Virus record (IMG/VR): IMGVR_UViG_3300032294_002877
Span: 1-64,000 of that record
DNA length: 64,000 nt
Direction: 5' to 3' (one strand)
Source of the DNA: a virus
In this document: positions 10,192-26,376 of the stretch, in pieces
Layout: each line of letters begins with the position of its first letter
How positions within the stretch are numbered: position 1 is the first letter of the stretch
Notes under the pieces: generated by a model
What the model saw: the letters and a program-made list of their open reading frames with translations, nothing else
Database searches by the model: none
What the model was told of the DNA's origin: nothing
Made by a program: the position numbers and the translations under genes

Positions 10192-10341
10192 ATGAACACC
10201 CGTACACTTCAGGATATTTTGCGAGCCGAACAGGTTCGGCTACCATCCATCACTAACCCTCTCATGCGACGGATAGTGAAAAAGCGTATACAGGTGCTCG
10301 CCCGTACACTACTGTACAGGTATCGAGCTAGTCTCACCTAA
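10192..10341 (+). CDS. Small basic protein
   Basis: 49 residues, MNTRTLQDILRAEQVRLPS, basic helical second half (RRIVKKRIQVLARTLLYRY). GGAAGGAA precedes the ATG. Its stop codon lies inside TAGTCAGC element A. Confidence 0.6.
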   Translation: MNTRTLQDILRAEQVRLPSITNPLMRRIVKKRIQVLARTLLYRYRASLT

Positions 10342-10377
10342 TCCTGCGGATTTGGGATAAGGTGGTATAGTCAGCGT
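10331..10377 (+). other. TAGTCAGC element A
   Basis: GTCTCACCTAATCC, a three-base loop, GGATTTGG, a spacer and TATAGTCAGCG. CCTAATCC and GGATTTGG can form a stem. One of eight copies; this one overlaps a stop codon and runs into cassette copy 5. Confidence 0.65.
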
Positions 10378-10455
10378 AAGTCTTTAGCCAGTAAGGACTT
10401 AGAACGAATCGGCGGCGCCCAGTTTGTCGTAACTCCTTATGCAGTAAGGGTTTAT
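10374..10455 (+). repeat. Double-hairpin cassette, copy 5
   Basis: Two dyads around ATCGGCGGCGCCCAG; an ATTATTTTTC tract follows and then the promoter at 10478. Confidence 0.8.
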
Positions 10456-10477
10456 GATCAAATTATTTTTCTAAAGG

Positions 10478-10507
10478 TTGGGGCAAAATTGGTCGATAAT
10501 TTATATA
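10478..10507 (+). promoter_or_regulatory. Promoter
   Basis: TTGGGG, 18-bp spacer containing TCGATA, TATATA. Weak -35. Confidence 0.5.
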
Positions 10508-10522
10508 TAAGGAGAAAAAACC

Positions 10523-10687
10523 ATGTTGACTCTAATTCTTTGGGCTGGTATGCTGGGTTATGGTGTGGGTTATGAGGGATATTCTGATGGGAAACTGTAC
10601 GTTGGTACATATACTCCTAAGGTGGAATATGGGTGGGTTGTGACGGATAGGGGGATTTATTTGGATACGATTCTGGAAAAAAACTGA
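10523..10687 (+). CDS. Small Gly/Tyr-rich protein
   Basis: 54 residues, hydrophobic Gly/Tyr N-terminus (MLTLILWAGMLGYGVGYEGYS) then a strand-rich part. AAGGAGA precedes the ATG. Possibly exported or membrane-associated; no family. Confidence 0.6.
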   Translation: MLTLILWAGMLGYGVGYEGYSDGKLYVGTYTPKVEYGWVVTDRGIYLDTILEKN

Positions 10688-10697
10688 AATTTTTTGC

Positions 10698-10726
10698 TTG
10701 ACAGGCCGATAAGTATATTGTAGGAT
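10698..10726 (+). promoter_or_regulatory. CCGATA-type promoter
   Basis: TTGACA, 17-bp spacer with GCCGATA two bases after the -35, TAGGAT. Confidence 0.8.
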
Positions 10727-10748
10727 TGTGGTATAAGGAGAAAAGAAT

Positions 10749-11057
10749 ATGATTCACGCCGAAGCGGTTAAGATGGTTCGGGGCAAGCGTAATGCTGATC
10801 GTCGCAAGATCGGTAACAATACCTATGCGGAAATCCTATACGATAATACCGTAGCAATTAAGTTGCATAATACCTACGTTGTGAAGATTAACCCAAACGG
10901 TACATATACGTTAAATAGTGGCGGATGGCAGACCGTTACCACTAAGGATAGAATTAACCAGTACAGCCCTGTTAGGGTTTACCAGCGGGATTTTACTTGG
11001 TATGTTAAGATTAACGGCAAGGAATATCCTTTTATGGATGGGATGGTGGTGTCGTAA
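10749..11057 (+). CDS. Conserved phage protein of unknown function
   Basis: 102 residues. The block RKIGNNTYAEILYDNTVAIK, the HNTYVVKINPNGTYTLNSGG strands and WQTVTTKDRINQY belong to a pattern I recognise from many phage genomes (KLANNTYL...DTVAVRLHNTDVV...DSGGWxTxTTKxRIN), whose function is not established. All beta, probably a small sandwich. TAATG overlap with the next gene. Confidence 0.8.
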   Translation: MIHAEAVKMVRGKRNADRRKIGNNTYAEILYDNTVAIKLHNTYVVKINPNGTYTLNSGGWQTVTTKDRINQYSPVRVYQRDFTWYVKINGKEYPFMDGMVVS

Positions 11058-11161
11058 TGAGTTTTTTCGGATTGTTGATATTGACAATCATTGTGGGGAT
11101 TGGTACAATTATCGTAGGGGCTGTTTTAGCCGAAACCTTTTTATCTATTCTTGACGATTAA
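11057..11161 (+). CDS. 34-residue membrane protein
   Basis: One long hydrophobic helix (LLILTIIVGIGTIIVGAVLA) and an acidic tail; start shares a base with the preceding stop. Confidence 0.55.
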   Translation: MSFFGLLILTIIVGIGTIIVGAVLAETFLSILDD

Positions 11162-11178
11162 CATAAAGGAATCCACGG

Positions 11179-11298
11179 ATGGATCTGATAGAACCTATTA
11201 GTTTCGTTTTCGGCGTAATTAGTGGAATTACCGCGTGTTATGCGGTTAGTGATCTGGTGTTCAGCAAGGAGACTAGCAATGAACGCGACGAAATCTGA
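11179..11298 (+). CDS. 39-residue membrane protein
   Basis: MDLIEPISFVFGVISGITAC then a polar, charged tail; AAAGGA before the ATG. Overlaps the next gene by 20 bp. Confidence 0.5.
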   Translation: MDLIEPISFVFGVISGITACYAVSDLVFSKETSNERDEI

Positions 11299-11362
11299 AA
11301 AACTGTTTCTTATTGGTTCGTTTTTTGCTGGGTGTGTTTTATCGTATCTCCTTTGCCTGTAA
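11279..11362 (+). CDS. 27-residue membrane microprotein
   Basis: Short basic N-terminus then one hydrophobic helix (LFLIGSFFAGCVLSYLLCL). AAGGAGA lies 7 nt upstream. Third of three consecutive single-helix proteins, perhaps forming one membrane module. Confidence 0.5.
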   Translation: MNATKSEKLFLIGSFFAGCVLSYLLCL

Positions 11363-11425
11363 GAACTTAGGGCAAAAGGGCGGCGCCCGGCTCGCCGTAA
11401 CTCCTTACGCACCAACGACTTAGAG
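11343..11425 (+). repeat. Double-hairpin cassette, copy 6
   Basis: Two dyads around GGCGGCGCCCGG; the first overlaps the end of the gene at 11279. An A/T tract and a promoter follow. Confidence 0.8.
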
Positions 11426-11452
11426 CGAAAAAAATTTTTCTAAAGATTTTGC

Positions 11453-11481
11453 TTGACTCTTGCCGATCTATACTGTAGAAT
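11453..11481 (+). promoter_or_regulatory. CCGATA-type promoter
   Basis: TTGACT, 17-bp spacer with GCCGAT, TAGAAT. Confidence 0.75.
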
Positions 11482-11508
11482 CGAATGCAGAAGAAAGAAA
11501 GGTGAGAT

Positions 11509-11649
11509 ATGAAAACGAAGAAGCAAAACGCGTACCAAAAAGCGGTTGCTCGCATGGAAAAGGAAACAAGCCGTGCGGTTGCTCATGTGGAATTGCTCCA
11601 GAAGCTATACGCTGAAATGGTCAAAAAAAATGCTAAAGTTTCCTCTTGA
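11509..11649 (+). CDS. Small basic helical protein
   Basis: 46 residues, Lys/Ala-rich single helix (KKQNAYQKAVARMEKETS), AAAGGTGAGAT before ATG. Its TGA overlaps the TTGACA of the next promoter. Confidence 0.6.
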   Translation: MKTKKQNAYQKAVARMEKETSRAVAHVELLQKLYAEMVKKNAKVSS

Positions 11650-11674
11650 CAAGTGCCGATTATTCTGGTAGACT
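11646..11674 (+). promoter_or_regulatory. CCGATA-type promoter
   Basis: TTGACA, 17-bp spacer with GCCGAT, TAGACT; shares the upstream stop codon. Confidence 0.75.
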
Positions 11675-11701
11675 GAACCCATCACAACGGAGAAGATTAT
11701 C

Positions 11702-11854
11702 ATGTTCAATTTTGACGAAGTGAACGCGATTCTGGCCGAGATGCGAGATGGTGGTATGGTCGAGCCGATTGACGATCCGACTATCAACGTGGATTTTTGG
11801 GACTGGGCCGATGTGATCGGTGTGGTCGAAGATTTTGAGCCTTTGGAATTTTGA
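11702..11854 (+). CDS. Very acidic small protein
   Basis: 50 residues, about one third Asp/Glu, helical N-terminus MFNFDEVNAILAEMRDGG. Followed by an even more acidic protein; no family. Confidence 0.6.
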   Translation: MFNFDEVNAILAEMRDGGMVEPIDDPTINVDFWDWADVIGVVEDFEPLEF

Positions 11855-11864
11855 AGAGGAAGCC

Positions 11865-12122
11865 ATGAGTCACCCTGACCCCTTGTTCGATCCCGATAAC
11901 GTTTTGGAGGATGATATGAACTACGCTGATGATGTTGACGCGTCGAACTACGACGATTATGATGATTTTTACGGCGAGATTGATGCTGATGAATTGGAGA
12001 ACAGTTGGGATGATTCGTATGATGATAGTATGGATGGTGATTCTGAGTCTGCGTTCGGTTCATGCGGATGGGGTTTGGACGAATATTACAACCCCGATAC
12101 CGATCACGGAGATGATTGGTGA
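11865..12122 (+). CDS. Extremely acidic protein
   Basis: 85 residues, more than 40% Asp/Glu plus many Tyr and Ser and almost no Lys/Arg. GAGGAAGCC before the ATG. The composition resembles DNA-mimic or metal-binding tails, and relatives in composition occur at 8708 and 20478. Function not known. Confidence 0.65.
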   Translation: MSHPDPLFDPDNVLEDDMNYADDVDASNYDDYDDFYGEIDADELENSWDDSYDDSMDGDSESAFGSCGWGLDEYYNPDTDHGDDW

Positions 12123-12123
12123 C

Positions 12124-12151
12124 TTGACTTTTGACAATTGTGTGGTAAACT
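12124..12151 (+). promoter_or_regulatory. Promoter without CCGATA
   Basis: TTGACT, 16-bp spacer, TAAACT, beginning just after the preceding stop. Confidence 0.55.
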
Positions 12152-12189
12152 AGTTTTAGGTTTTAGGGTTTTCTAACTGAAAGGTTTTT

Positions 12190-12600
12190 ATGAACGATTG
12201 GATGATTCTTGCTGGTGTTTTTGGTATTGTTCTTGCTGGTATGGTTACGTTTGCTCTGTATCATATCTATAGTGGTGTTCACTCTACTTTGGCTAATGCC
12301 CAAGTTGGTGAGGTTTACAATTTCGAGTATCTTCAGCCGCATCATGGCGATCCGGTTAGGGTTCTCGCAAGAGTAATTGAGCCTGCGTGTACGCTGAGTG
12401 ATGAGAGTATCCGTAGGCTGAATGCGACTAGTAACTATCGTGTTCACGATCCGGAATTCAAGCGTACTCGTCACCTTGTAACGTGTGAGACTCCGAATGG
12501 TGAGGTTCGACAGTTCTATGCTGAACGTGCAAAGAACGTGCGTCGTCCTCTTCTCGCGGGACTGCTTTTCCGTACAGGTACTGCACACCTGTTCGCGTGA
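12190..12600 (+). CDS. Membrane-anchored unknown phage protein
   Basis: 136 residues. One N-terminal transmembrane helix (about 5-25), then a soluble beta-rich domain starting GEVYNFEYLQP and ending REFYAER-like QFYAERAKNVRRPLLAG. The soluble part has a conserved look, with HDPEFKRTRHLVTCETPNGE as probable core, but I cannot name the family. Confidence 0.65.
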   Translation: MNDWMILAGVFGIVLAGMVTFALYHIYSGVHSTLANAQVGEVYNFEYLQPHHGDPVRVLARVIEPACTLSDESIRRLNATSNYRVHDPEFKRTRHLVTCETPNGEVRQFYAERAKNVRRPLLAGLLFRTGTAHLFA

Positions 12601-12626
12601 ACGATTGTTCAGTTCGGTTAACCCTG

Positions 12627-12711
12627 GCCCTAAGTTGTTGCCACGCAATGACTTAGGGTTCGGGGGCGCCACCCGATTTGACGTAACTCCTTATCCTCCA
12701 ACACTTTACGT
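12627..12711 (+). repeat. Double-hairpin cassette, copy 7
   Basis: First dyad perfect: CCCTAAGT pairs with ACTTAGGG. Second dyad uses CGTAA...TTACG. Linker GGGGGCGCCACC. Confidence 0.85.
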
Positions 12712-12738
12712 CTCAATAATTTTTTCTATATTTTTCTC

Positions 12739-12766
12739 TTGACACTTGCCGATTATACTGTAGAAT
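12739..12766 (+). promoter_or_regulatory. CCGATA-type promoter giving a leaderless message
   Basis: TTGACA, 16-bp spacer with GCCGAT, TAGAAT; the ATG begins 7 nt after the -10, where transcription should start. Confidence 0.75.
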
Positions 12767-12772
12767 AATCGC

Positions 12773-12937
12773 ATGAACACTAATAACTGCTATGCCGGAT
12801 TTTCGTGGCGTGTTTTCAAAAATAATCGGTTCGCCGGTTATGTTGTGGCTCTGAGCCAGACGGATGCTATACGCAAAGCCGTCGAGAAGTATGGTCGATA
12901 TGTGTGGGTTGAACGGATTACCTATAGTCGGGTCTAG
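12773..12937 (+). CDS. Small basic unknown protein, probably leaderless
   Basis: 54 residues: MNTNNCYAGFSWRVFKNNRF, then AIRKAVEKYGRYVWVERITY. No room for a ribosome-binding site between the -10 and the ATG, so the mRNA should begin at or next to the start codon. No family. Confidence 0.6.
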   Translation: MNTNNCYAGFSWRVFKNNRFAGYVVALSQTDAIRKAVEKYGRYVWVERITYSRV

Positions 12938-12951
12938 TCAAGGGAATAAAT

Positions 12952-13413
12952 ATGTTCACGGTCAATCATATGAATCGGGTTTTGTGCGAAATCAAGGGAT
13001 TGGGTAGCAAGAGTGTGTTTTCTATTCGTAAGAGTCGCCTGACTTATAGACTTTCTTGCATGAATAGCCAACACCGTGGTGCGATTATTGAGAAGATGAT
13101 TCGGGATAGGTTCATTATGCAGGGTAAGCGGGTTAGGTATATCGGGGGAAGTAATTCGTTCGATATGCTGGTTGATGGTGAGCGTGTGGAAATCAAGTCC
13201 TCTCTGCCTATGGTGATTCCTACCAAGAAGGGTCATACTCTTTTCTATAGGTTTCAGAATATCAAAACTAAGTATTTTGATAAGATTGTACTGGTTTATG
13301 TTAGTCCGAATGGTTTGAGGGTAAAAACTTTCACTAAAAAGACTATGATGAAGATGCTGCGGAAGAGCAAGTATTATGCCAACGGCAAAATGTATGCGTG
13401 TGCGGCAAAATAA
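12952..13413 (+). CDS. PD-(D/E)XK-type nuclease-like protein
   Basis: 153 residues. The signature is GGSNSFDMLVDGERVEIKSS: Asp71, eight residues, Glu80-Ile-Lys82, the D-(x)n-E-x-K active-site pattern of restriction-type endonucleases, preceded by a helix with Glu47 (QHRGAIIEKMIRDRFI). The rest (TKKGHTLFYRFQNIKTKYFD) fits the later strands. Basic throughout. Could be a resolvase-, restriction- or repair-type nuclease. No specific subfamily claimed. Confidence 0.7.
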   Translation: MFTVNHMNRVLCEIKGLGSKSVFSIRKSRLTYRLSCMNSQHRGAIIEKMIRDRFIMQGKRVRYIGGSNSFDMLVDGERVEIKSSLPMVIPTKKGHTLFYRFQNIKTKYFDKIVLVYVSPNGLRVKTFTKKTMMKMLRKSKYYANGKMYACAAK

Positions 13414-13428
13414 TTCATGGTTGTGTGG

Positions 13429-13457
13429 TTGACAGCCGATACCGTATAGTATAGAAT
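13429..13457 (+). promoter_or_regulatory. CCGATA-type promoter
   Basis: TTGACA, 17-bp spacer with GCCGATA one base after the -35, TAGAAT. Confidence 0.85.
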
Positions 13458-13477
13458 CTAGACAAAGGGAGAGAAAA

Positions 13478-13984
13478 ATGCCTAACTGGTGCCTGAATAG
13501 ATTGGTTGTTTCTCATAGTGATTCTAGTATGCTTGACCGTTTTATAAAAGCATATAATAGGGGTACTGTTTGTAATGAGTTTCTGCCAGAGCCAAAAGAC
13601 CTTGACCAAGATGACGATATGGGGCCTAATGGTTGGTGGACTTGGAGAATTGAAAACTGGGGAACCAAATGGGACATTGGTGCTGATGAGGGGACTGATA
13701 GGGAAGAATGGCATGGTCGGAAGGCTCAAATTGTAAATAATGAAGTTGTTTGTTCGTTTGACTCTGCTTGGGCTCCTCCTATTGGTTTGTATAAGGAGTT
13801 GGTTCTGCAAGGGTTTAGGGTTGCTGCATCATACTTTGAGCCGGGTATGAGTTTCTGTGGCGAATGGATCGACGGCACTGATAACTATATCGAATACGGT
13901 AATAACAAGAATCTAATTACTAAACAGATTTGGGGGGACTACAATCTCACAGAGTTTTTTGCTGACGATGAAGTAGAAGCCTAA
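13478..13984 (+). CDS. Api92-like ferredoxin-fold protein (DUF1281 type)
   Basis: 168 residues. MPNWCLNRLVV at the N-terminus, IENWGTKWDIGADE in the middle and FDSAWAPPIGLYKEL near the C-terminus match the phage/plasmid Api92/YubB family signature (MPNWCxNxL, NWGTKWD, TxWxPP). Known in phages and conjugative plasmids, function uncertain. Own promoter, followed by cassette copy 8. Confidence 0.85.
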   Translation: MPNWCLNRLVVSHSDSSMLDRFIKAYNRGTVCNEFLPEPKDLDQDDDMGPNGWWTWRIENWGTKWDIGADEGTDREEWHGRKAQIVNNEVVCSFDSAWAPPIGLYKELVLQGFRVAASYFEPGMSFCGEWIDGTDNYIEYGNNKNLITKQIWGDYNLTEFFADDEVEA

Positions 13985-13990
13985 TAGGTT

Positions 13991-14074
13991 CGCTCTAAGT
14001 TCTTGATACCAAAGGACTTAGGGCAAACCCGCGCCGCCCGGCTCGACGTAAGTGCTTGGTAGCAAAAGAGTTGC
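13991..14074 (+). repeat. Double-hairpin cassette, copy 8
   Basis: First dyad GCTCTAAGT...ACTTAGGGC; second weaker. Followed by AAAAAAATATTTTTTC and a promoter. Confidence 0.8.
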
Positions 14075-14104
14075 ATCAAAAAAATATTTTTTCAAGAAAC
14101 CCTA

Positions 14105-14132
14105 TTGACAAGCCGATAATAGAGTGTAGAAT
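14105..14132 (+). promoter_or_regulatory. CCGATA-type promoter with no gene behind it
   Basis: TTGACA, 16-bp spacer with GCCGATA, TAGAAT. The next credible gene is 380 bp away and has its own promoter. Confidence 0.8.
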
Positions 14133-14139
14133 GATGGAG

Positions 14140-14450
14140 TAAGACAAAACAATATGCGTGGGTCCAAGCGCACGGACTAGATTGGGATAACCTGTACGAT
14201 AAACCCTTACCAGCGATTGCTGTTTGGGTTGCCTAACGGGGTTATACGTTGGGATAGTATACCAGTCTATGGGGGATCGCGTCCTCACCACGCTCCATAC
14301 AACCAGTAACCGTCACCAAGAGCCAGACTAACCGGAACATGATGCTAGCAGTTCATCCGGTTACAGGGAGGTTTCCGTGGGCGGTTTCCATCCGATCCTG
14401 ACAAGGGACAATCGTATGGTCTATAGGAATCGGGGCGTAAAAGATTCCGC
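14140..14450 (+). ncRNA. Putative structured non-coding RNA
   Basis: About 310 nt between a good promoter and the next promoter, without an open frame longer than eight codons (MRGSKRTD at 14154). It contains a perfect 8-bp stem, TAACCGGA (14329-14336) with TCCGGTTA (14356-14363), enclosing the palindrome TGCTAGCA, then two GGTTTCC repeats. No known RNA family recognised. It may be a regulatory RNA or a long leader. Confidence 0.5.
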
Positions 14451-14462
14451 TGGTTTTTCTTA

Positions 14463-14490
14463 TTGACTTGCCGATAAAGAATGGTATAAT
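14463..14490 (+). promoter_or_regulatory. CCGATA-type promoter
   Basis: TTGACT, 16-bp spacer with GCCGATA, TATAAT. Starts the run 14510-15323. Confidence 0.85.
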
Positions 14491-14509
14491 AGTGGAATAG
14501 GAGAGAAAA

Positions 14510-14740
14510 ATGACCGTTAACGAACTTATTGAGCAGTTGAAGAATTATCCGTCTGATATGCGTGTGCTTGCTCTTGGTTATGAGGGTGGGTTTGACGATA
14601 TCAATCTGAAAACGGATGATATTGTATTCAATGTGAATAATAAAGATACCTGGTATATGGGTTCTCATGAGACTGTTGATATGTGTGGAGAGTATGGTAA
14701 TAGTGGTGAGAAGTGTTTGATTGTTATAAGGGCTAAATAA
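14510..14740 (+). CDS. Conserved small phage protein
   Basis: 76 residues: MTVNELIEQLKNYPSDMRVL, then GYEGGFDDI and a C-terminal LIVIRAK strand. This pattern (TVxELIxxLxxYPxDxxV...YEGGFDD...) is widespread in phages and host genomes as a small alpha/beta domain of unknown function. TAATG overlap with the next gene. Confidence 0.8.
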   Translation: MTVNELIEQLKNYPSDMRVLALGYEGGFDDINLKTDDIVFNVNNKDTWYMGSHETVDMCGEYGNSGEKCLIVIRAK

Positions 14741-14997
14741 TGGAATGGCTTAGTTTTTTTGGTTATCGTCGCCCTATCAACGGTCAGAAAGTTTATTACT
14801 TTGGGCCATATATTGGTGTGTGGCAGGGGAGGTATGAGATTCATAGGGATGATCCTGTGAGTGAACATATTCTTATTTGTGAGGAAACTCCGGGGGTTGT
14901 AGATCGTATGGATGCTCCGTGGTGGATGCCATATGAGGGACAACCAAAGCCACAACGACCAGAAACTGACTATCCAAAGGATTACCCACATGGCTAA
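14740..14997 (+). CDS. Small Tyr/Pro-rich protein
   Basis: 85 residues, compact beta pattern in the first 50 residues (GQKVYYFGPYIGVWQGRYEI) and a Pro-rich tail. Coupled to the preceding gene. I recall similar short phage proteins but cannot name a family. Confidence 0.7.
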   Translation: MEWLSFFGYRRPINGQKVYYFGPYIGVWQGRYEIHRDDPVSEHILICEETPGVVDRMDAPWWMPYEGQPKPQRPETDYPKDYPHG

Positions 14998-15202
14998 AAA
15001 CTTCAAAGACTTGCATACCGTTGATGCAAAAGACATGACCCGTGATCAGGCTATGATCTATGTTATTAACTTTTTTAACTCTCGTATGGCAACAATGAGT
15101 AACTCTCACAGAAATAAGGTTAAAGAGGTTATTGGATTGCATGAGATTGGTACTAGCGAACTCGTTAATAAATATCTGGAGTTGGTCCTTGAAAATTCTT
15201 GA
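14990..15202 (+). CDS. Small helical protein
   Basis: 70 residues, start ATG 14990 overlapping the previous gene by 8 bp. Helical throughout (DQAMIYVINFFNSRMATM). No family. Confidence 0.65.
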   Translation: MAKNFKDLHTVDAKDMTRDQAMIYVINFFNSRMATMSNSHRNKVKEVIGLHEIGTSELVNKYLELVLENS

Positions 15203-15323
15203 TACTAGTTGCAAGTGTGGACGCTGTGATGGGTCTATCTTTCGTGTGGACAAGTATGGTATTCCATGGTACTGGTGTTCTAATTGCGAATGGTGGTACC
15301 TAAAAGACTGGGAAGATGTTTGA
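15189..15323 (+). CDS. Small zinc-ribbon protein
   Basis: 44 residues. No ATG is available; TTG 15189 fits, with GGAG 7 nt upstream. CKCGRCDG and CSNC form a four-Cys zinc knuckle separated by an aromatic strand. Overlaps the upstream gene by 14 bp. Confidence 0.55.
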   Translation: MKILDTSCKCGRCDGSIFRVDKYGIPWYWCSNCEWWYLKDWEDV

Positions 15324-15325
15324 AT

Positions 15326-15412
15326 CGTCGTAAGTGATTGGGATATAAAGACTTACGACAAAGCGGCGCCACCCGATTCGCCCTAACTCTTTATGCTGCA
15401 ACAACTTACGAC
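15326..15412 (+). repeat. Double-hairpin cassette, copy 9
   Basis: First dyad has perfect 9-bp arms, GTCGTAAGT with ACTTACGAC: the compensated alternative to CCCTAAGT/ACTTAGGG in copy 7. Linker GCGGCGCCACC; ATTATTTTTC follows. Confidence 0.85.
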
Positions 15413-15438
15413 TAAAATTATTTTTCTAAAGAATCCTC

Positions 15439-15466
15439 TTGACTATCCCGATAATAGATGTATACT
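15439..15466 (+). promoter_or_regulatory. CCGATA-type promoter
   Basis: TTGACT, 16-bp spacer with CCCGATA, TATACT. Confidence 0.8.
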
Positions 15467-15473
15467 TAGGGAG

Positions 15474-15622
15474 CAAGTAGATTAGGGCCGTTGGCAGAAT
15501 GATATCAAAGAAGCCGCGGTTAAATGCAAGGCCGAGTATGGCATAACCCAATCTATTTGTTTTTCCTAATCCTTCGGATTTGGCTGGAGTGGCTGTAGTC
15601 AGCGAGAATAAAGGAACACTTT
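15474..15622 (+). promoter_or_regulatory. Long structured leader of the gene at 15623
   Basis: About 150 nt from the predicted start to the ATG. TAGATTAGGG (15478-15487) pairs with CCCAATCTA (15547-15555) with one bulge, closing a domain with internal GC-rich helices, and TAGTCAGC element B follows. This looks like a riboswitch-sized two-domain leader; ligand or partner unknown. Confidence 0.5.
15563..15608 (+). other. TAGTCAGC element B
   Basis: CCTAATCC-TTC-GGATTTGG stem, GGCTGGAGTGGCT direct repeat, then TAGTCAGCGAG. Ends 15 nt before the ATG at 15623. Confidence 0.7.
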
Positions 15623-16018
15623 ATGCAGTGTAGGTCCATTGCTGTTGGTATGATTGAGGAAACTTATGATACATACAAGCGTGTGTGGTCTATCGATGGT
15701 AGTTTGTTTAGCGAATTAAATAAATTCGATATTCCTGTATGGAATAATATGAATAGCGACACAAAACGTGCTGCTATCGAATATGTTTATCAAAATCGCA
15801 ATACTATCGAACTACACTCTGGAGAAGTTGAGTCTTGGGTACAGGCTACGGCATATTTCATGATTATGAATTTTGCTTCTATTTTGAGCCCTGATGTTGA
15901 GCCTGAGATTGAGGTCTTTTTTGACGATATGGATTTTATGATAGACGAAGATGTTTTGACTGATAGTGATGTTCAAGAGCAGATGGGTATTGGAAAAAAT
16001 TTCACTGATAAGTTTTAA
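15623..16018 (+). CDS. Unknown protein behind a structured leader
   Basis: 131 residues; AAAGGAA precedes the ATG. Mixed helical protein with a very acidic C-terminus (EIEVFFDDMDFMIDED). No family recognised. It is the clearest example of a gene directly behind a TAGTCAGC element. Confidence 0.65.
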   Translation: MQCRSIAVGMIEETYDTYKRVWSIDGSLFSELNKFDIPVWNNMNSDTKRAAIEYVYQNRNTIELHSGEVESWVQATAYFMIMNFASILSPDVEPEIEVFFDDMDFMIDEDVLTDSDVQEQMGIGKNFTDKF

Positions 16019-17389: not shown

Positions 17390-17429
17390 CAATTCAAACT
17401 GGACTATGCCAGTATAAAGAGATTTTAGG

Positions 17430-17643
17430 CATAGTGCGGCGGGATTCGTCCCGCGTAATGAGAGTTCGTTGCAGACCTAGGTGCAGCCTAGAGAGGGATT
17501 TAACCAATCCTATAAGACGGGTGGTTCCGTCGAAAGTTGTTGCTCTCTAGAGTTTTATTACTAATATAGATGGTACAACAACGCCAGCAAACCGATAGAC
17601 GCTGACGAGCCCCGGCGGTAGCACCGTCCGGGCTATCGGTCTA
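17430..17643 (+). ncRNA. Putative novel structured RNA with pseudoknot
   Basis: No open frame. Visible pairings: GCGGGA-TTCG-TCCCGC (17439-17454); CTAGAGAG (17488-17495) with CTCTCTAG (17543-17550), enclosing hairpins GGATT/AATCC and GACGG/CCGTC; GTTGTTG (17536-17542) with CAACAAC (17576-17582), which crosses the previous helix and so forms a pseudoknot; and ACCGATAG (17591-17598) with CTATCGGT (17633-17640) enclosing a GC-rich arm. It ends directly before tRNA-Arg. I recognise no known family. Confidence 0.6.
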
Positions 17644-19848: not shown

Positions 19849-19876
19849 TCGGAGGCTGACGTTAGAGTTACGGAGT

Positions 19877-21247: not shown

Positions 21248-21303
21248 GACAAATCGGGGCGGCCCGGCCAGCCCTAAGTCCTTACGCCACAAACACTTAC
21301 GTC
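21220..21303 (+). repeat. Double-hairpin cassette, copy 13
   Basis: Overlaps the last codons of the phosphoribosyltransferase gene. Second dyad CCTAAGTCC...ACACTTACG; linker ATCGGGGCGGCCCGGCC. Confidence 0.8.
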
Positions 21304-21330
21304 ACGAAAATTTTTCCACAAGTTTTCCGC

Positions 21331-21358
21331 TTGACACGCCGATAAGATATGGTAGAAT
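21331..21358 (+). promoter_or_regulatory. CCGATA-type promoter
   Basis: TTGACA, 16-bp spacer with GCCGATA, TAGAAT; among the best matches to consensus. Confidence 0.85.
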
Positions 21359-21400
21359 CAGTGAAGTAGAACGAAGTACGATAACACGAAGGAGATGATG

Positions 21401-22348
21401 ATGCCTGCTGCTGTTGAAAAGATGATGTTTGTTGGTGCTACCCCGTGGCACGGTGAGGGTACGCAACTCGACGAGAATCCGTCGATCAGCGAAGCGATTA
21501 CCGCTGCTGGTCTGGATTGGGAAGTCGGGACAAAGCCGCTGTTTACGGCGGAGGGTACGGAAGTCAATGCGAAGGCCACCTATCGCAAGAGCGATAATCG
21601 GGTGCTGGGCGTTGTGGGTCCGCGTTACACTCCGTTGCAGAATCAGGATGCTTTCGATTGGTTCCAGCCGTTTCTCGACGCTGGCGAGTGCCAACTCCAT
21701 ACGGCTGGCTCGCTCTGCGAAGGTGAGAAGGTTTGGGTTCTCGCTCAACTCAATCGTGAGAACAGCGAGATTGTTCCCGGTGACGAGGTGAGCAAGTTTA
21801 TCCTGCTGTCTAACAGCCACGACGGTTCAACGTCGATCCGCGTCGGATACACTCCGATTCGCGTGGTCTGCGTCAACACGCTCGCGGCTGCTCATCGCAG
21901 CAACGATAGCCAGTTGATTCGGATTCGTCACACACGCTCCAGCAAGGTCAATCTGGAGAACGTGCGAGATATCATGGATAATATCAACGTGCAGTTTGAG
22001 GCTACTGCGGAACAGTATCGGTTCCTCGCTAGCAAGAATTTCAACCAGAACGATATCAAGCGTTATGTCAAGGTGATGCTCGGTATCGATAAGACTCCGG
22101 ACGAGGATATCAAGACTCGCACGAAGAATATCATGGACGAGATTCTCGCCCTTGTGGAAGGTCCGAAGCAAGCCGCAACCAATGTTCGCGGAACTTGGTG
22201 GGCTGCTTACAACGGGTACAACGAGTACCTCAACTACAACAAGGGTCGTAACGTGAGCAATCGACTCGATTCGCTCTGGTTCGGCCAGAATGGGGTTGAC
22301 AACCTCAAGGCACTCAACACTGCTGTGGAGTTTGCGAACGCCGTCTGA
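21401..22348 (+). CDS. DUF932 family phage/plasmid-like protein
   Basis: 315 residues. Three consecutive ATGs occur; GGAG at 21391-21394 is properly spaced only for the third (21401, MPAAVEK). The family signature is visible: TPWHGEGTQLDENPSISEAI, then VVGPRYTPLQNQDAFDWFQP, SHDGSTSIRVGYTPIRVVCVNT and WWAAYNGYNEYLNY. Members (also called TIGR03299) are common in phages and plasmids; function not established. Codons are G+C-rich and strongly biased, and it has a consensus promoter and its own terminator, so high early expression is likely. Confidence 0.9.
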   Translation: MPAAVEKMMFVGATPWHGEGTQLDENPSISEAITAAGLDWEVGTKPLFTAEGTEVNAKATYRKSDNRVLGVVGPRYTPLQNQDAFDWFQPFLDAGECQLHTAGSLCEGEKVWVLAQLNRENSEIVPGDEVSKFILLSNSHDGSTSIRVGYTPIRVVCVNTLAAAHRSNDSQLIRIRHTRSSKVNLENVRDIMDNINVQFEATAEQYRFLASKNFNQNDIKRYVKVMLGIDKTPDEDIKTRTKNIMDEILALVEGPKQAATNVRGTWWAAYNGYNEYLNYNKGRNVSNRLDSLWFGQNGVDNLKALNTAVEFANAV

Positions 22349-22369
22349 TCTTCAGTCACGATGAAGAGT

Positions 22370-22416
22370 GAAGCCGCCGTAGGGGTTGCCCAAGACCTCT
22401 GCGGCGGTTTCTTTTT
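22370..22416 (+). terminator. Rho-independent terminator
   Basis: GAAGCCGCCG pairs with CGGCGGTTTC (10 bp, one G-U) and continues into a T run. Confidence 0.9.
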
Positions 22417-22430
22417 AATCCGACGACATT

Positions 22431-22516
22431 TGACGTAAACCATTGGTATTAAAAGACTTAGGGCTCGCGGGGGCCGCAAATTTCGTCCTAAATTCAATAC
22501 TGGTAAGGACTTACGG
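22431..22516 (+). repeat. Double-hairpin cassette, copy 14 (last)
   Basis: GACGTAAACCATTGG...ACTTAGGGC and CGTCCTAAATTC...GGACTTACGG around GCGGGGGCCGC. No further copies are seen to the right. Confidence 0.75.
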
Positions 22517-22526
22517 AAAATTTTTA

Positions 22527-22555
22527 TAGACAAGCGGCCAGAGTGCCGATATAAT
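22527..22555 (+). promoter_or_regulatory. CCGATA-type promoter
   Basis: TAGACA, 17-bp spacer whose last bases GTGCCGA run into TATAAT, so CCGATA overlaps the -10. Confidence 0.65.
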
Positions 22556-22654
22556 GGAAGGGAACGGGCGTAAGGTGTTTGGTGGTAATGGGTTAGGAAG
22601 AAATAGTAAAAGAATAAAATGAAAGATATCGAAAGAATATCACTAGACTAAAAT

Positions 22655-22704
22655 GTATCACCTAATCTGGCCGGTTTGCGGTCTTGGCGATAGTCAGCGA
22701 GAAT
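22655..22704 (+). other. TAGTCAGC element C
   Basis: CACCTAATCTGGCCGGTTTG, then GCGGTCTTGGCGATAG and TCAGCGAG. Same 3' core as the other copies; GCG...GCG direct repeat. Confidence 0.7.
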
Positions 22705-22746
22705 TATAACATCTATAGTCTACCTAACTCTATGATTCTCAACACC

Positions 22747-22775
22747 TTGCGTCGAGTGTTACTATATGGTATACT
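22747..22775 (+). promoter_or_regulatory. Promoter for element D transcript
   Basis: TTGCGT, 17-bp spacer, TATACT. Confidence 0.6.
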
Positions 22776-22828
22776 GGAGGATGTGAGAGAAGAGTATAAT
22801 CTCTTGAGATTTAGTCTCAGTATTTTAC

Positions 22829-22875
22829 TGTCCCACCTAAATCATCAGGTTTGCGGTCTTGGCGATAGTCAGCCA
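22829..22875 (+). other. TAGTCAGC element D
   Basis: CCACCTAAATC-ATCA-GGTTTG stem, GCGGTCTTGGCGATAGTCAG, then CC. Identical to element C over GGTTTGCGGTCTTGGCGATA although flanks differ. Confidence 0.7.
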
Positions 22876-22925
22876 AAAAATAGGGGTCTTTTTAAATTTG
22901 TGCAGGAAAGAATGAGGATTATTAT

Positions 22926-23105
22926 ATGAATGATATTGAAGCATTTTTCTATTCTTTGCATAGGGCAAAAATTCAGGGTGACTACTATATGGATACTAAT
23001 GATAGTAAGTATCTTGATGCTGCTGGTGATTATTTAAAGGCTGCTAGTATTTTTATTAACAATTTGAAGGGAGATAATTGTGAGAATAAATTCACTAGGG
23101 TATAG
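22926..23105 (+). CDS. Small helical protein
   Basis: 59 residues MNDIEAFFYSLHRAKIQGDY..., TPR-like helical pair (KYLDAAGDYLKAASIFINNL). Follows element D by about 50 nt. Overlaps the lipoprotein gene by 26 bp. Confidence 0.6.
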   Translation: MNDIEAFFYSLHRAKIQGDYYMDTNDSKYLDAAGDYLKAASIFINNLKGDNCENKFTRV

Positions 23106-23397
23106 TCTGTTGATTCTTGCGGCCCTTTGCGGGTGCAAAAATAACAGAGAAATTTCGATCACCTTGCCAGAGGTTGAGGATATTAGTTCTTATGAGTATG
23201 ATTACTATAGCGGACAAAATGCTGCTGTATCTCAGTTTGGTGGGGATAATGATAATGATTTAATTGTCAATCTCCAGAATAAAAGAGTAATATCTTATGC
23301 GTCAGATAATAATCATCAGGGTTATGCTGACGGGTATCATAAGACTCTGGATATTCTTGATGCTCGAAACAATCCGAAATGTCCCGATCTTCATTAG
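23080..23397 (+). CDS. Small lipoprotein
   Basis: 105 residues, GTG start with AAGGGAGA upstream. Signal peptide MRINSLGYSLLILAAL and lipobox-like L-C-G-C with Cys19 as lipid attachment site, followed by charged KNNREIS. Mature part Asp/Asn/Tyr-rich. Probably lipid-anchored in the cell envelope. No family; possibly superinfection exclusion or spanin-like (speculative). Confidence 0.7.
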   Translation: MRINSLGYSLLILAALCGCKNNREISITLPEVEDISSYEYDYYSGQNAAVSQFGGDNDNDLIVNLQNKRVISYASDNNHQGYADGYHKTLDILDARNNPKCPDLH

Positions 23398-23406
23398 GAG
23401 ATTTTT

Positions 23407-23631
23407 ATGTTGTCCCCAATTAAAGCTATTATAATTTCATCTGCTCTAATTAATCCTATTGATACATCCAAGCCCATTGTTTTATCGGGCGATTATACTA
23501 TTGAGGCTAATGAGTACCTGAGAAAAGTTAGGGTGCCTAGTACTCAAAAAGAAATTATCATTGATATTATGTATCAAGAGATTCTTCAGGAACTCAGAGA
23601 AGAGTCTAAGGTTAAGTATTGGATGCCATAG
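23407..23631 (+). CDS. Small unknown protein
   Basis: 74 residues behind TTAGGAGA. N-terminal hydrophobic strand-rich half, C-terminal amphipathic helix (IIIDIMYQEILQELREESK). No family. Confidence 0.65.
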   Translation: MLSPIKAIIISSALINPIDTSKPIVLSGDYTIEANEYLRKVRVPSTQKEIIIDIMYQEILQELREESKVKYWMP

Positions 23632-23666
23632 TCGACACTTGATGTAACCCTTGTATAGTCAAGGGG

Positions 23667-23694
23667 TTGCGTCAACCGATACCTATGGTATACT
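23667..23694 (+). promoter_or_regulatory. CCGATA-type promoter
   Basis: TTGCGT, 16-bp spacer with ACCGATA, TATACT. Confidence 0.7.
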
Positions 23695-23785
23695 GATACT
23701 GACGAGTGCGGGACGCCTGGTTTTAATATTTACACAATACTCCAGTAGAATTTATCTATTGGTTTCCTTTCCAAAAGGGTTTTTA

Positions 23786-23857
23786 ATGTTTGGCACTTTC
23801 CTGACGGTTAGTTTGGTTTTCGGAATCTACAGCGGTCTTTCATGCTGTGGGAGGTGA
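23786..23857 (+). CDS. 23-residue membrane microprotein
   Basis: MFGTFLTVSLVFGIYSGLSC plus CGR, one hydrophobic segment. AAAAGGG precedes the ATG; a promoter lies about 90 bp upstream. Confidence 0.4.
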   Translation: MFGTFLTVSLVFGIYSGLSCCGR

Positions 23858-24154
23858 TTCTTAAAATCTAACTACACGCTATTATAGGTCACCAATCAAG
23901 AAAAGCAAGTGTTATGATTAAATTCATTCACCTTTTATCAAGTTAGAGATTTCTAACGAAAGACCTAGAATAGTGGTTAGAAGTATAATAGATATTGTTA
24001 GTATATAGTATATTAACCCCGGACCTGCTAAATATATAATACAATTTCATGGTAGCGTCAAGAAAAGATTTTTTTATACGATACGATAGTAGTATCTTCT
24101 AGAAGCATAATAGTCTGGACACTATCCGGAACTCTTGTTACTATAATCTTATTC
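23858..24154. other. Intergenic stretch without a gene
   Basis: About 300 A/T-rich bases. Only a ten-codon frame (MIKFIHLLSS) and an inverted repeat TTCTAAC...GTTAGAA near 23950 are visible. It may be leader sequence for tRNA-Gly. Confidence 0.5.
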
Positions 24155-24227
24155 GCAAGAGTAACTCAATTGGCAGAGTGTCAGGTTTCCAACCTGAATG
24201 TTGAGGGTTCGATTCCCTTCTCTTGCT
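24155..24227 (+). tRNA. tRNA-Gly(UCC)
   Basis: Acceptor GCAAGAG/CTCTTGC, anticodon stem TCAGG/CCTGA, loop TTTCCAA gives UCC. Confidence 0.9.
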
Positions 24228-24234
24228 TTTAATT

Positions 24235-24284
24235 GTCGCACCTTAAGCATCGGATTTGATGTCTTGATGATAGTCAGCGAGAAT
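24235..24284 (+). other. TAGTCAGC element E
   Basis: TGTCGCACCTTAAGCATCGG then ATTTGATGTCTTGATGATAG and TCAGCGAG, eight bases after tRNA-Gly. CATC-GGATTT-GATG can pair; GATG...GATG direct repeat. Confidence 0.65.
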
Positions 24285-24364
24285 GTGAGGTCCAAATGAT
24301 AGAGTGTTAAAAAAAGATTCTGCACTCGTTCGTTCATTTGGTTACTATACCATTAGCATACCAC

Positions 24365-24412
24365 TGTCTCAGGTAATGCTTCGGGTTTGGTTTTTTTGGT
24401 TGTAGTCAGCCA
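24365..24412 (+). other. TAGTCAGC element F
   Basis: CTGTCTCAGGTAATGCTTCG then GGTTTGGTTTTTTTGGTTGT and AGTCAGC; GGTT...GGTT direct repeat. Ends 20 nt before the ATG at 24432. Confidence 0.65.
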
Positions 24413-24431
24413 AGTTTAGGGAAATAATAAA

Positions 24432-24839
24432 ATGAAAGTAGAACACTCAGAATTCCAAACAGTAAATGATACTACTTCTAATAAGTATTATACTAAGTTA
24501 GGTTCTCAGGATTTTATGGATGATGAGAGTAATCCTCGTCTTAACACTGAGAGTTCACTAACGTGCGCCAAGAGTGTTAAATCACCATTTTCCAAAACGT
24601 TTACATATGGTGAAACCCCCACATACAAATACTTTATTAAAACCGATCCCAATCACAACCTGTTTAATCCTGTCACTAACTTTTCTGGTATCGCTGCCCG
24701 CCCGAATTTTATCAACAAAATTTGCAAGAGCGAACAGGTTTATACTGAAGTTAATAAGTCTGTTTTTGATAAGTATGTTAGTTTTCTTCGCACTCTTAAT
24801 GTTCAATGGTTGACTAGTGCTCAACGAGAAATGAGATGA
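24432..24839 (+). CDS. Unknown protein behind element F
   Basis: 135 residues, polar and Asn/Ser/Thr-rich, with NFSGIAARPNFINKI and a C-terminal helix VFDKYVSFLRTLNVQWL. First of three overlapping genes ending with the phosphoribosyltransferase. No family. Confidence 0.65.
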   Translation: MKVEHSEFQTVNDTTSNKYYTKLGSQDFMDDESNPRLNTESSLTCAKSVKSPFSKTFTYGETPTYKYFIKTDPNHNLFNPVTNFSGIAARPNFINKICKSEQVYTEVNKSVFDKYVSFLRTLNVQWLTSAQREMR

Positions 24840-25021
24840 GAATATCTTTTTCTCTAAGAGAAAATATAGAGTGTGAGAAAATATGCCAGGGTATACAAAT
24901 GCTAATTCAAAAGAGCATGAATAGTCTGGACCCTAGCAAGACCCTTTTAGTTATTGATTTGATTCAAATAAACCAAGAAACTAATGATCTTATGCAACGA
25001 ATAGAATACAAACATGACTAA
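24836..25021 (+). CDS. Small helical protein
   Basis: 61 residues, ATGA overlap with the previous gene; helical (ENIECEKICQGIQMLIQKSM). No family. Overlaps the next gene by 8 bp. Confidence 0.65.
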   Translation: MRISFSLRENIECEKICQGIQMLIQKSMNSLDPSKTLLVIDLIQINQETNDLMQRIEYKHD

Positions 25022-25478
25022 TAAAATAGTAACAAACGAGAAACTATTCTACTCATGGAACGACTTTGAGACTGATTGTTACTCATTAGAAAAACAAATT
25101 GACAATAGCAGATGGATTCCTGACTATATTGTAGGGATCAAGCGGGGAGGCTTGATACCAGCAGTAAAGCTTAGTCATCTTTTTGGTAAACCTTTAATCT
25201 TGGTATCGTGTCAAACACGAGACGGAAATTCTTTTGTAGATTTGTTAGAGGCAGAACGAATTCCTAAACAGAAGAATATTTTGATAGTTGATGATATTTG
25301 TGATAGTGGACTAACATTCGAAAAGATTGTTGACACTTTCATAGAAAATAACTTTCTAAGTATACGGTGCTGTGCTCTGTATTACAATACTAGTCAGCCG
25401 TTTACTATTGATTACAACGCGAGAGAGATTGATAGGTTAACGGATAGTAAATGGATAGTGTTTCCTTGGGAGATTTAA
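25014..25478 (+). CDS. Phosphoribosyltransferase (xanthine/hypoxanthine-type)
   Basis: 154 residues. VGIKRGGLIPAVKLSHLFG is the first loop-helix and ILIVDDICDSGLTFEKI the PRPP-binding motif; the C-terminus SKWIVFPWE matches bacterial xanthine-guanine PRTs. Likely salvages a purine base with PRPP in the cytoplasm. Complete for this compact subgroup. Confidence 0.85.
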   Translation: MTNKIVTNEKLFYSWNDFETDCYSLEKQIDNSRWIPDYIVGIKRGGLIPAVKLSHLFGKPLILVSCQTRDGNSFVDLLEAERIPKQKNILIVDDICDSGLTFEKIVDTFIENNFLSIRCCALYYNTSQPFTIDYNAREIDRLTDSKWIVFPWEI

Positions 25479-25493
25479 AATAAGATTTTGAGT

Positions 25494-25521
25494 TTGACCA
25501 TTCATTCACCCATGGTAAAAT
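25494..25521 (+). promoter_or_regulatory. Promoter without CCGATA
   Basis: TTGACC, 16-bp spacer, TAAAAT. Confidence 0.6.
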
Positions 25522-25527
25522 ATAAGC

Positions 25528-25623
25528 CAGTGATGGAGCCGGTAACTAACTGAATCGGAGATTCGGGGAGTTGTTGGAATCATAAGCAAATTGTTTTATA
25601 CTTTTTTGTTTATGAGGTGACTT
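25528..25623 (+). promoter_or_regulatory. Structured 5' leader
   Basis: About 95 nt before the ATG with GAATC-GGA-GATTC inside an AACT...AGTT stem, then a U-rich TTTTATACTTTTTTG stretch and TGAGGTG as ribosome-binding site. A hairpin plus U-run before the start could be an attenuator or riboswitch. Confidence 0.4.
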
Positions 25624-25878
25624 ATGAAGACTTGGGTTATTAATAGTGTTAATCGTGAGGACATTCAAAGACGTTATATTGATAGGATACTGGGCGAATT
25701 AGACTTTATGCAGATTAAAGATAGGTTAAGGGACTATCTTAGTCTAGAAAAAGATAAATCGTCTAATAAAGCACTAGAGGCTGAGATACGCCACGAAGCG
25801 CCAGATATATTGGTTGATAATTGGGAGGACTTTGATGAGCCCGCCACCTTAATTAAGGAGGAACCTCATCATGCCTAG
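25624..25878 (+). CDS. Conserved small phage protein
   Basis: 84 residues. MKTWVINSVNREDIQRRYID then RILGELDFMQIKDRLRDYLS and a C-terminal acidic tail. I recognise the REDIQRRYIDRI...QIKDRLRDYL pattern from small phage proteins; function unknown. Overlaps the next gene by 8 bp. Confidence 0.75.
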   Translation: MKTWVINSVNREDIQRRYIDRILGELDFMQIKDRLRDYLSLEKDKSSNKALEAEIRHEAPDILVDNWEDFDEPATLIKEEPHHA

Positions 25879-26116
25879 ATTATTTACAAGAGTAATAACT
25901 TTTAAGATTGAGGGTGAAATTTATGACTCATCCACAACTCCTGAGAGTATTATAAGGAATTATACATTCGCGTTTAAAGATTACGGTGATGGAAAGGATC
26001 ACTGTTTCTTGGAAATGACGCATCATGATACTAGAGGTCGAATTACTAAAATATCAAGATTACCAAATATCAAAAAGTGGAAAAAACCTGACACAGAGTT
26101 CTTCCTAAAGTTGTGA
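25871..26116 (+). CDS. Small beta-rich protein
   Basis: 81 residues, alternating strands (TRVITFKIEGEIYDS, HCFLEMTHHDTRGRITK). Coupled to 25624. AAGGAGG lies before the ATG. No family. Confidence 0.65.
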   Translation: MPRLFTRVITFKIEGEIYDSSTTPESIIRNYTFAFKDYGDGKDHCFLEMTHHDTRGRITKISRLPNIKKWKKPDTEFFLKL

Positions 26117-26127
26117 TATTGGTTAAG

Positions 26128-26160
26128 ATAGCCCCCGACATAAACGTTGGGGGTTTATCT
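26128..26160 (+). terminator. Terminator-like hairpin
   Basis: CCCCCGAC pairs with GTTGGGGG around ATAAAC, with GATA/TATC outside and a modest T-rich tail. Confidence 0.7.
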
Positions 26161-26161
26161 T

Positions 26162-26212
26162 TGTCTCAGCTTATGCTGCCGGGTTTGGTGACTTGGTGAT
26201 AGTCAGCGAGAT
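26162..26212 (+). other. TAGTCAGC element G
   Basis: TGTCTCAGCTTATGCTGCCG then GGTTTGGTGACTTGGTGATA and GTCAGCGAG, directly after the terminator hairpin. TTGGTGA occurs twice as a direct repeat. Confidence 0.65.
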
Positions 26213-26278
26213 TTTGGGATTCTATTATTAGTCTTTTGCATAGAACAATCAATACGAACAAACTAGAAAAATTTATCA

Positions 26279-26307
26279 TTGATATCCAGATCACGAACGG
26301 TTATAAT
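26279..26307 (+). promoter_or_regulatory. Promoter for the element H operon
   Basis: TTGATA, 17-bp spacer, TATAAT. Confidence 0.65.
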
Positions 26308-26325
26308 ATACTGGTGGGGCAATAT

Positions 26326-26376
26326 AGTCCCAGCTTAACCTCCGGATTTGGTTTTAATGGTTACAGTCAGCAGGGA
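26326..26376 (+). other. TAGTCAGC element H
   Basis: AGTCCCAGCTTAACCTCCGG then ATTTGGTTTTAATGGTTACA and GTCAGC. Lies about 12 nt after the predicted transcription start and 6 nt before the ATG at 26382. Confidence 0.7.

What the first reader, a model, noticed from the sequence alone, without database searches (positions are those of the whole stretch)
10331..26376. Eight-copy leader element ending in TAGTCAGC with a co-varying internal direct repeat
Elements A-H (10331, 15563, 22655, 22829, 24235, 24365, 26162, 26326) share about 47 nt: (T)GTCYCASCTTAAYC, short loop, CGGATTTGG, variable part, TAGTCAGCGAG. The variable part is a direct repeat that changes in step: GGCT...GGCT, GCG...GCG, GATG...GATG, GGTG...GGTG, GGTT...GGTT. 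Simple hairpins do not produce co-varying direct repeats; alternative pairing of both copies with one partner, or a two-site protein contact, could. At least four copies lie between a promoter and a start codon 6-50 nt away, so they act as RNA leaders. I know no riboswitch or sRNA family with this consensus.
Basis: partly seen in the sequence, partly recalled or inferred. Interest (0 to 1): 0.8.

Follow-up and report, generated by a model that had tools for sequence, protein, structure and literature searches.

The report
Phage RNA element with matched twin motif
A short RNA element of about 49 letters recurs eight times in this uncultured large phage and hundreds of times in its relatives, and it contains a tiny sequence written twice whose two copies change together, a pattern I know from no described RNA family and whose job is still unknown.

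Summary
All eight copies exist, all on one strand, and the window's whole 180-kb phage record shows none outside 10.3-26.4 kb. Pattern scans of IMG/VR plus an HMM gave 316 distinct related places in large uncultured phages. The odd feature is confirmed on this large set: two copies of UGNNN, normally 9 nt apart, are identical to each other while the NNN 'code' is free. 72 of 148 distinct cassettes match at all three code positions (11 +/- 3 expected).

The sense RNA is folded: a 5-bp hairpin precedes copy 1, and linker base 29 pairs with the third code base of copy 2, with G-U allowed. No cis partner for the code exists within 110 nt. At orthologous loci with near-identical flanks both copies change together and nothing else compensates. 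Codes are not shared within a genome, so a single genome-encoded partner is unlikely.

The 'leader' label is only half right: relatives also sit at tRNA and ncRNA 3' ends and just upstream of promoters. No Rfam match, reading frame or phage reverse transcriptase was found. I read it as a new cis-acting structured RNA family with a self-matching twin motif. The mechanism is inferred, not shown.

The parts
10330..10378 (+). Element A, code GGA/GGT, follows an ORF end; no ORF start close behind
   Evidence: sequence; HMM and alignment
15558..15606 (+). Element B, code GCT/GCT; follows a conserved ncRNA-like segment (about 15474-15557), ATG of the 131-aa ORF at 15623
22654..22701 (+). Element C, short cassette TTGCGGTCTTGGCG, in the 5' part of a transcript (promoter-like site 22527-22555)
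22829..22876 (+). Element D, same cassette as C, about 50 nt before the ORF at 22926
24234..24281 (+). Element E, TGATG/TGATG with spacing 8, directly behind tRNA-Gly (24155-24227)
24365..24413 (+). Element F, code GTT/GTT, ORF start at 24432
26162..26210 (+). Element G, TGGTG/TGGTG with spacing 8, just behind a terminator-like hairpin (26130-26155)
26326..26374 (+). Element H, code GTT/GTT, between a promoter-like site (26279-26307) and the ATG at 26382
15568..15580 (+). Hairpin P1 of element B (AATCC TTC GGATT), representative of P1 in all copies
   Evidence: P1 plus 29-36: 88.8% of cells paired against 83.2% in shuffles and 62.5% or less when slid
15580..15596 (+). Twin motif of element B: TTG-GCT-GGAG-TG-GCT-GT

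Best explanation
It is a family of small (about 49 nt) cis-acting structured RNA elements that an uncultured clade of large phages uses as modular intercistronic parts in its tRNA and small-gene region. The fold (shown by covariation) is: a conserved 5' arm GUYYCASCU, a 5-bp hairpin P1 (AAUCC/GGAUU), then U-G-N-N-N, a 3-5 nt linker, a second U-G-N-N-N whose third code base pairs with the second linker base, and an invariant RUAGUCAGC tail. The two UGNNN copies must equal each other, but their content is free and nothing else in cis follows them (shown). I infer that inside the compact fold the two copies recognise each other, or occupy two equivalent places, so that the matched pair is a folding requirement like a stem but with identity instead of complementarity. 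I also infer that the folded RNA acts on the transcript that carries it, as a docking site for RNA polymerase or an RNA-processing factor at 5' leaders and at tRNA/ncRNA 3' ends. The factor and the effect are not shown.
For: Large independent family and consensus. Identity of columns 25/34, 26/35, 27/36 with z = 9, 16 and 10; 72/148 distinct cassettes match fully against 11 +/- 3; identity is strongest for A and G codes, which cannot pair with the conserved tail (counts). Column 29 pairs with 36 using all six standard pair types (115/148 against 72 +/- 6), kept in 41 of 49 cases where 27 differs from 36; G-U counts as pairing and A-C does not, so the sense strand folds. P1 covaries. No cis partner; concerted change at loci with near-identical flanks (59 pairs with both copies changed, 10 with one; alignments). 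Code sharing within a locus 11.0%, between loci 10.5%, so no genome-wide partner. Length is rigid: no one-copy or three-copy version. Always the same strand within a genome.
Against: RNAalifold predicts no consensus fold and single-sequence energies are unremarkable, so the fold rests on covariation alone. Direct like-with-like contact between RNA strands is rare and no structure shows it here. Contexts are mixed (before ATGs, after tRNAs, after a terminator), which leaves the acting factor open. In one relative (L165) the 5' arm lies inside a tRNA acceptor stem, so it need not be free in every RNA.
Confidence: 0.38

Rival explanations
1. Both copies pair, in turn or together, with one partner RNA supplied in trans (a phage or host small RNA); C/U and A/G differences between copies are tolerated because the partner base is G or U.
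For: Identity plus C/T differences is what a shared partner predicts; C/T and A/G mismatches are less depleted than complementary combinations at 26/35.
Against: Codes in one genome are as different as between genomes, so each element would need its own partner; codes switch at loci whose surroundings are 97-99% identical.
Confidence: 0.15
2. The partner is the DNA template itself: the copies lie 8-10 nt apart, the length of the RNA-DNA hybrid in RNA polymerase, so the newly made copy 2 can re-pair with the template of copy 1, giving a programmed pause or slip just behind hairpin P1.
For: Offset 9 in 137.5 of 153 scored repeats, otherwise mostly 8 or 10; explains identity with a free code and no RNA partner; mismatches lean the way RNA copy 2 on template copy 1 would allow (CT over TC and AG over GA, clear only at 27/36).
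Against: Does not explain the 29-36 RNA pair, which also biases column 36; a 9-nt register shift by RNA polymerase has no precedent that I know; no element with an extra or missing repeat.
Confidence: 0.13
3. It is an RNA-processing site or a self-cleaving ribozyme that frees tRNA 3' ends and mRNA 5' ends.
For: 43 of 283 contexts lie against a tRNA 3' end; size and compactness fit; a Pistol ribozyme lies in the same region here and in a relative.
Against: The distance to the tRNA end is not fixed and the tRNA can overlap the first ten bases; no Rfam ribozyme match.
Confidence: 0.12
4. Two-site contact: a dimeric RNA-binding protein (for example a translational repressor) grips one UGNNN with each subunit.
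For: Direct repeat of constant geometry; about half of the contexts lie before open frames.
Against: A protein reads the bases, yet NNN is almost free and changes without change of neighbouring genes.
Confidence: 0.1
5. A DNA-level joint or promoter-like site that marks module borders and promotes shuffling of tRNA and small-gene cassettes.
For: The same upstream module is followed by different downstream modules behind the element; the elements lie at unit borders near promoters.
Against: Sense-strand G-U pairing at 29/36 and the lack of A-C at 12/20 point to folding of one strand; shuffling by ordinary homology between repeats would look the same.
Confidence: 0.08
6. Translation: identical codons 9 nt apart (bypassing) or a leader peptide.
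For: Offset 9 keeps frame; column 31 is almost never C, so 31-33 reads ATG/GTG/TTG.
Against: Offsets of 8 and 10 break the frame; stop codons in the three downstream frames are alike; second-position mismatches are frequent; several elements end just before a promoter.
Confidence: 0.03

Closest known systems
HK022 put RNA (PMC9378689, abstract listed)
   Same: A nascent phage RNA with hairpin structure acting in cis on its own transcription is the kind of role I would test first.
   Different: put is not repeated in many contexts, has no matched twin motif, and Rfam shows no relation; action on RNA polymerase is untested here.
T-box riboswitch (antiterminator bulge UGGN; from general knowledge)
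   Same: The repeated UGGN resembles the bulge that pairs with a tRNA NCCA end, and tRNA genes are neighbours.
   Different: No stem I or specifier loop, no Rfam match; far smaller; a minority of copies have C or A at the third base, which would not pair with CCA.
Mobile promoter and stem-loop cassettes between genes of T4-type phages (recalled, not read here)
   Same: Modular intercistronic units in the small-gene region, next to early promoters.
   Different: Those are a promoter plus a terminator-like stem; this element is neither and has the twin motif.
Telomerase or DRT2-type RNA templates (from general knowledge)
   Same: A short direct repeat that lets a product re-align is the best known reason for identical repeats with free content.
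   Different: No reverse transcriptase family match in 14 genomes carrying the element.
Pistol ribozyme (RF02679)
   Same: A structured phage RNA found in the same region of the same genome.
   Different: Unrelated sequence and fold; the elements do not match it.

Membership tests
Any Rfam 15 family | Covariance-model score above gathering | tested here: not met
   No hit over any element at gathering in the window or in 8 related loci; no convincing hit near an element up to E=10 for C/D and up to E=5 for E-H
T-box riboswitch | UGGN bulge complementary to tRNA NCCA, N following one tRNA | tested here: inconclusive
   UGG in most elements, but C or A at the third base in a minority, and loci behind the same tRNA carry different codes
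T-box riboswitch | Stem I with specifier loop and terminator/antiterminator | tested here: not met
   Element is about 49 nt with one 5-bp hairpin; no Rfam T-box hit
HK022 put-like antitermination RNA | Acts in cis on RNA polymerase from the nascent RNA | not testable with these tools
   needs in vitro transcription
HK022 put-like antitermination RNA | Two stem-loops | tested here: not met
   one hairpin P1 plus a single covarying pair 29-36
Self-cleaving ribozyme | Site-specific self-cleavage | not testable with these tools
   no bench; no fixed distance to tRNA ends
Reverse-transcriptase template RNA | Phage encodes a reverse transcriptase | tested here: not met
   PF00078 absent from 14 carrier records, control rings; records may be incomplete
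Translational bypassing element | Lies inside an ORF with take-off and landing codon in frame | tested here: not met
   no reading-frame signal downstream; spacing 8-10
Intrinsic terminator | GC-rich hairpin followed by a T run | tested here: not met
   P1 is 5 bp and followed by TTTG; the scan reports no terminator at the elements themselves

The most novel reading that the evidence does not exclude
The element contains an RNA module in which two short segments recognise each other like-with-like, so that identity, not complementarity, is what evolution conserves: a new rule of RNA structure or of RNA-template interaction, read out by hundreds of natural variants.
Probability: 0.25. Interest if true: 0.88.

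Novelty: categorically new. Interest (0 to 1): 0.64.

Why it matters
RNA structure is normally recognised by complementary changes. Here the strongest coupling in a widespread element is identity between two segments, with no partner in cis, so either a new kind of intramolecular RNA recognition or an unusual coupling of a nascent RNA with its template is at work. The element is also a compact, frequent part of a large uncultured phage clade and marks its tRNA and small-gene region. Hundreds of natural variants, including matched and mismatched ones at otherwise near-identical loci, make the rule directly testable.

Tried and rejected
Cis partner for the code: complement searches in 100 nt on each side gave only family effects from one conserved ncRNA; column-by-column covariation to +/-110 nt gave nothing. 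A 5'/3' closing stem: no covariation. Reading frame: none. Linker as the partner of both copies: only 29-36 is direct. Pseudoknot of the P1 loop (CUAC) with GUAG: examined by eye only, not supported because column 16 is free and 37 is mostly A. Constant tail (CAGC) as common partner: fails because A and G codes are kept identical too. Genome-wide code or orthogonal bar codes: neither. Reverse transcriptase: none. Named phage relatives: no element found in the INPHARED collection by blastn, and proteins have only distant matches, so the host is unknown. Terminase and capsid family searches in the own record found nothing (the capsid control also rang nowhere). Bacterial genomes: 4 of 67 pattern hits also match the HMM, three of them MAG contigs under 8 kb; the rest look like chance. 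One IMG/VR scan was largely wasted on a mis-spaced pattern. An element complementary to the tail (CGGAGGCTGACG, one per genome) exists but is not paired with the elements one to one.
Full report
What is there. The window is the first 64 kb of a 180,460-base virus record. Reading the sequence and an unsupervised repeat search show eight copies of the element at 10330, 15558, 22654, 22829, 24234, 24365, 26162 and 26326, all on the + strand. A pattern search of the whole record finds no further copy. The region holds 10 of the window's 11 tRNA genes, a Pistol ribozyme (17398-17460), many small ORFs and an excess of promoter-like sites (75 against 40 in shuffles). No Rfam family matches any element.

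Relatives. An HMM of the clear copies finds 316 distinct places at E<1e-3 in the fetched DNA. In 14 long contigs a strict pattern finds 1-7 elements per record, all on one strand, and in most records within a single stretch of roughly 10-20 kb. The INPHARED phages hold no blastn match, so this is an uncultured clade of unknown host. Search bias to keep in mind: the patterns fixed TTTG, TG and TAGTCAGC, and two of the three viral patterns fixed G at columns 25 and 34. Columns 26, 27, 35 and 36 were free in all patterns. Many elements are second hits in the same loci and were found by the HMM only.

Anatomy. In 75 diverged members the consensus is TGTCTCACCTAATCCTNCGGATTTGGNNNNNNTGGNNATAGTCAGCGAA. 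Fully invariant are G1, T2, A11, G19, T21, T22, G24 and AGTCAG (columns numbered from 0 throughout). A hairpin P1 (columns 10-14 with 18-22) and the pair 29-36 are kept in 88.8% of cells, against 83.2% in shuffles (0 of 500 as high) and 62.5% or less when slid by one to three columns; 37 cells change on both sides against 20 expected. RNAalifold and single-sequence folding do not see a fold, which is understandable for a five-pair stem with a tiny loop but leaves the fold resting on covariation.

The twin motif. In the ungapped majority class, columns 25/34, 26/35 and 27/36 are identical in 92, 81 and 71% of 224 distinct cores. On 148 distinct cassettes, 72 match at all three positions against 11 +/- 3 after permutation, and 80 match at NN against 14 +/- 3. 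The z-scores for identity are 9, 16 and 10, the three strongest identity couplings in the part of the element that was scored, and complementary combinations are depleted. The offset is 9 in 137.5 of 153 scored repeats, 8 in 8 and 10 in 4, and in elements such as E and G it follows the linker length. No element with one or three copies was seen. The code takes many different values.

One base of structure inside the twin motif. Column 29, the second linker base, pairs with column 36, the third code base of copy 2: 115 of 148 against 72 +/- 6, with G-U, U-G, A-U, U-A, C-G and G-C all present. Where 27 differs from 36, the 29-36 pair is kept in 41 of 49 while 27-29 is kept in 19. So 29-36 is a true pair and does not explain why 27 equals 36. 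Because G-U counts as pairing and A-C does not, the strand that folds is the sense strand, hence most likely RNA.

No partner elsewhere in cis. Complement searches upstream and downstream and a column scan over 110 nt on each side give nothing beyond a family effect of one conserved ncRNA. Orthologous loci make the point: at a tRNA-Glu locus and an ncRNA locus many phages share flanks and differ in the cassette. In L009 against L235 more than 200 bases around the element are identical but for one other substitution, while the cassette goes from GTA-GTCT-TG-GCG to CCG-GTCG-TG-CTG. In L021 against L195 GGA/GGA becomes GAA/GAA inside an identical linker, with no compensating change close by. Over all pairs with at least 70% flank identity, 59 differ in both copies and 10 in one; some switches may be transfers of whole cassettes between elements, since some cassettes recur at different loci. 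Codes are shared no more within a locus than between loci (11.0 and 10.5%), which argues against one genome-encoded partner and against bar codes.

Where it sits. Of 283 contexts, 43 lie against a tRNA 3' end, 136 have a promoter-like site within 45 nt downstream and 166 an open frame starting within 60 nt (the last number includes chance). In some relatives the tRNA overlaps the first bases of the element, and element G follows a terminator-like hairpin. The element is thus a modular part at borders of transcription units, sometimes a leader and sometimes a trailer. The same upstream module can be followed by different downstream modules behind the element. Stop codons show no reading frame. 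The neighbouring ORFs are mostly without family.

How it may work. Shown: a sense-strand fold, a hairpin, one covarying pair, an invariant tail, and a pair of segments kept identical with no partner in cis. Inferred: the copies contact each other or two equivalent places in a compact fold that acts on its own transcript, perhaps on RNA polymerase (like HK022 put RNA in kind of role, PMC9378689, abstract listed) or on a processing factor. The main alternatives are a partner in trans, the DNA template as partner (the spacing equals the RNA-DNA hybrid length), a ribozyme or processing site, a dimeric protein, and a DNA joint. None of these is excluded by sequence alone; a nearby partner in cis, translation and a phage reverse transcriptase are disfavoured by direct tests.

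Comparison. It matches no Rfam family; it lacks the stem I and specifier of a T-box, the two stems of put, and any reverse transcriptase for a template RNA. I know of no RNA family whose strongest coupling is identity of two segments with free content.

Verdict. Real, widespread, unassigned, with an unusual evolutionary signature and an open mechanism.

Noticed in passing
window 17398-17460: Pistol self-cleaving ribozyme (52.5 bits, gathering 34.5) between an ORF and a tRNA cluster; another in relative L007 9010-9072.
   Followed up: partly
window 19849-19875; L008, L014, L031 and others: Second short conserved element CGGAGGCTGACG-n-GAGTT(G/A)CG, one per locus, wedged between tRNA genes or at the start of tRNA transcripts; its GGCTGAC is complementary to the GTCAGCC form of the twin-motif element's tail.
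   Followed up: partly
window 10393-10478, 11361-11446, 12647-12732, 14012-14097, 15347-15432 and four more to 21323: Nine-copy 86-nt repeat with AAGGACTTAG and TAAGTCCTT arms, most copies just upstream of promoter-like sites; possibly an operator or terminator family.
   Followed up: no
window 14140-14440: About 300 nt without a convincing ORF behind a strong promoter-like site, with the look of a structured non-coding RNA; no Rfam match.
   Followed up: no
window 15474-15557; L009, L053, L139, L163, L235: Conserved ncRNA-like segment GGGCCGTTGGCAGAATGATATCAAAGAAGCC...GAGTATGGC...AACCCAA directly before element B and its orthologues, nearly identical between phages.
   Followed up: partly
window 46786-47142: Phage-encoded tmRNA (101.5 bits) next to tRNA-Ile.
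   Followed up: no
L165 6813-6937: The first ten bases of an element form the 3' acceptor strand of a tRNA-Ser gene, so tRNA and element overlap.
   Followed up: partly
window 2876-4759: Glutamine-fructose-6-phosphate transaminase (glmS-like) gene in a phage genome, about 43% identical to copies in other phage records.
   Followed up: no
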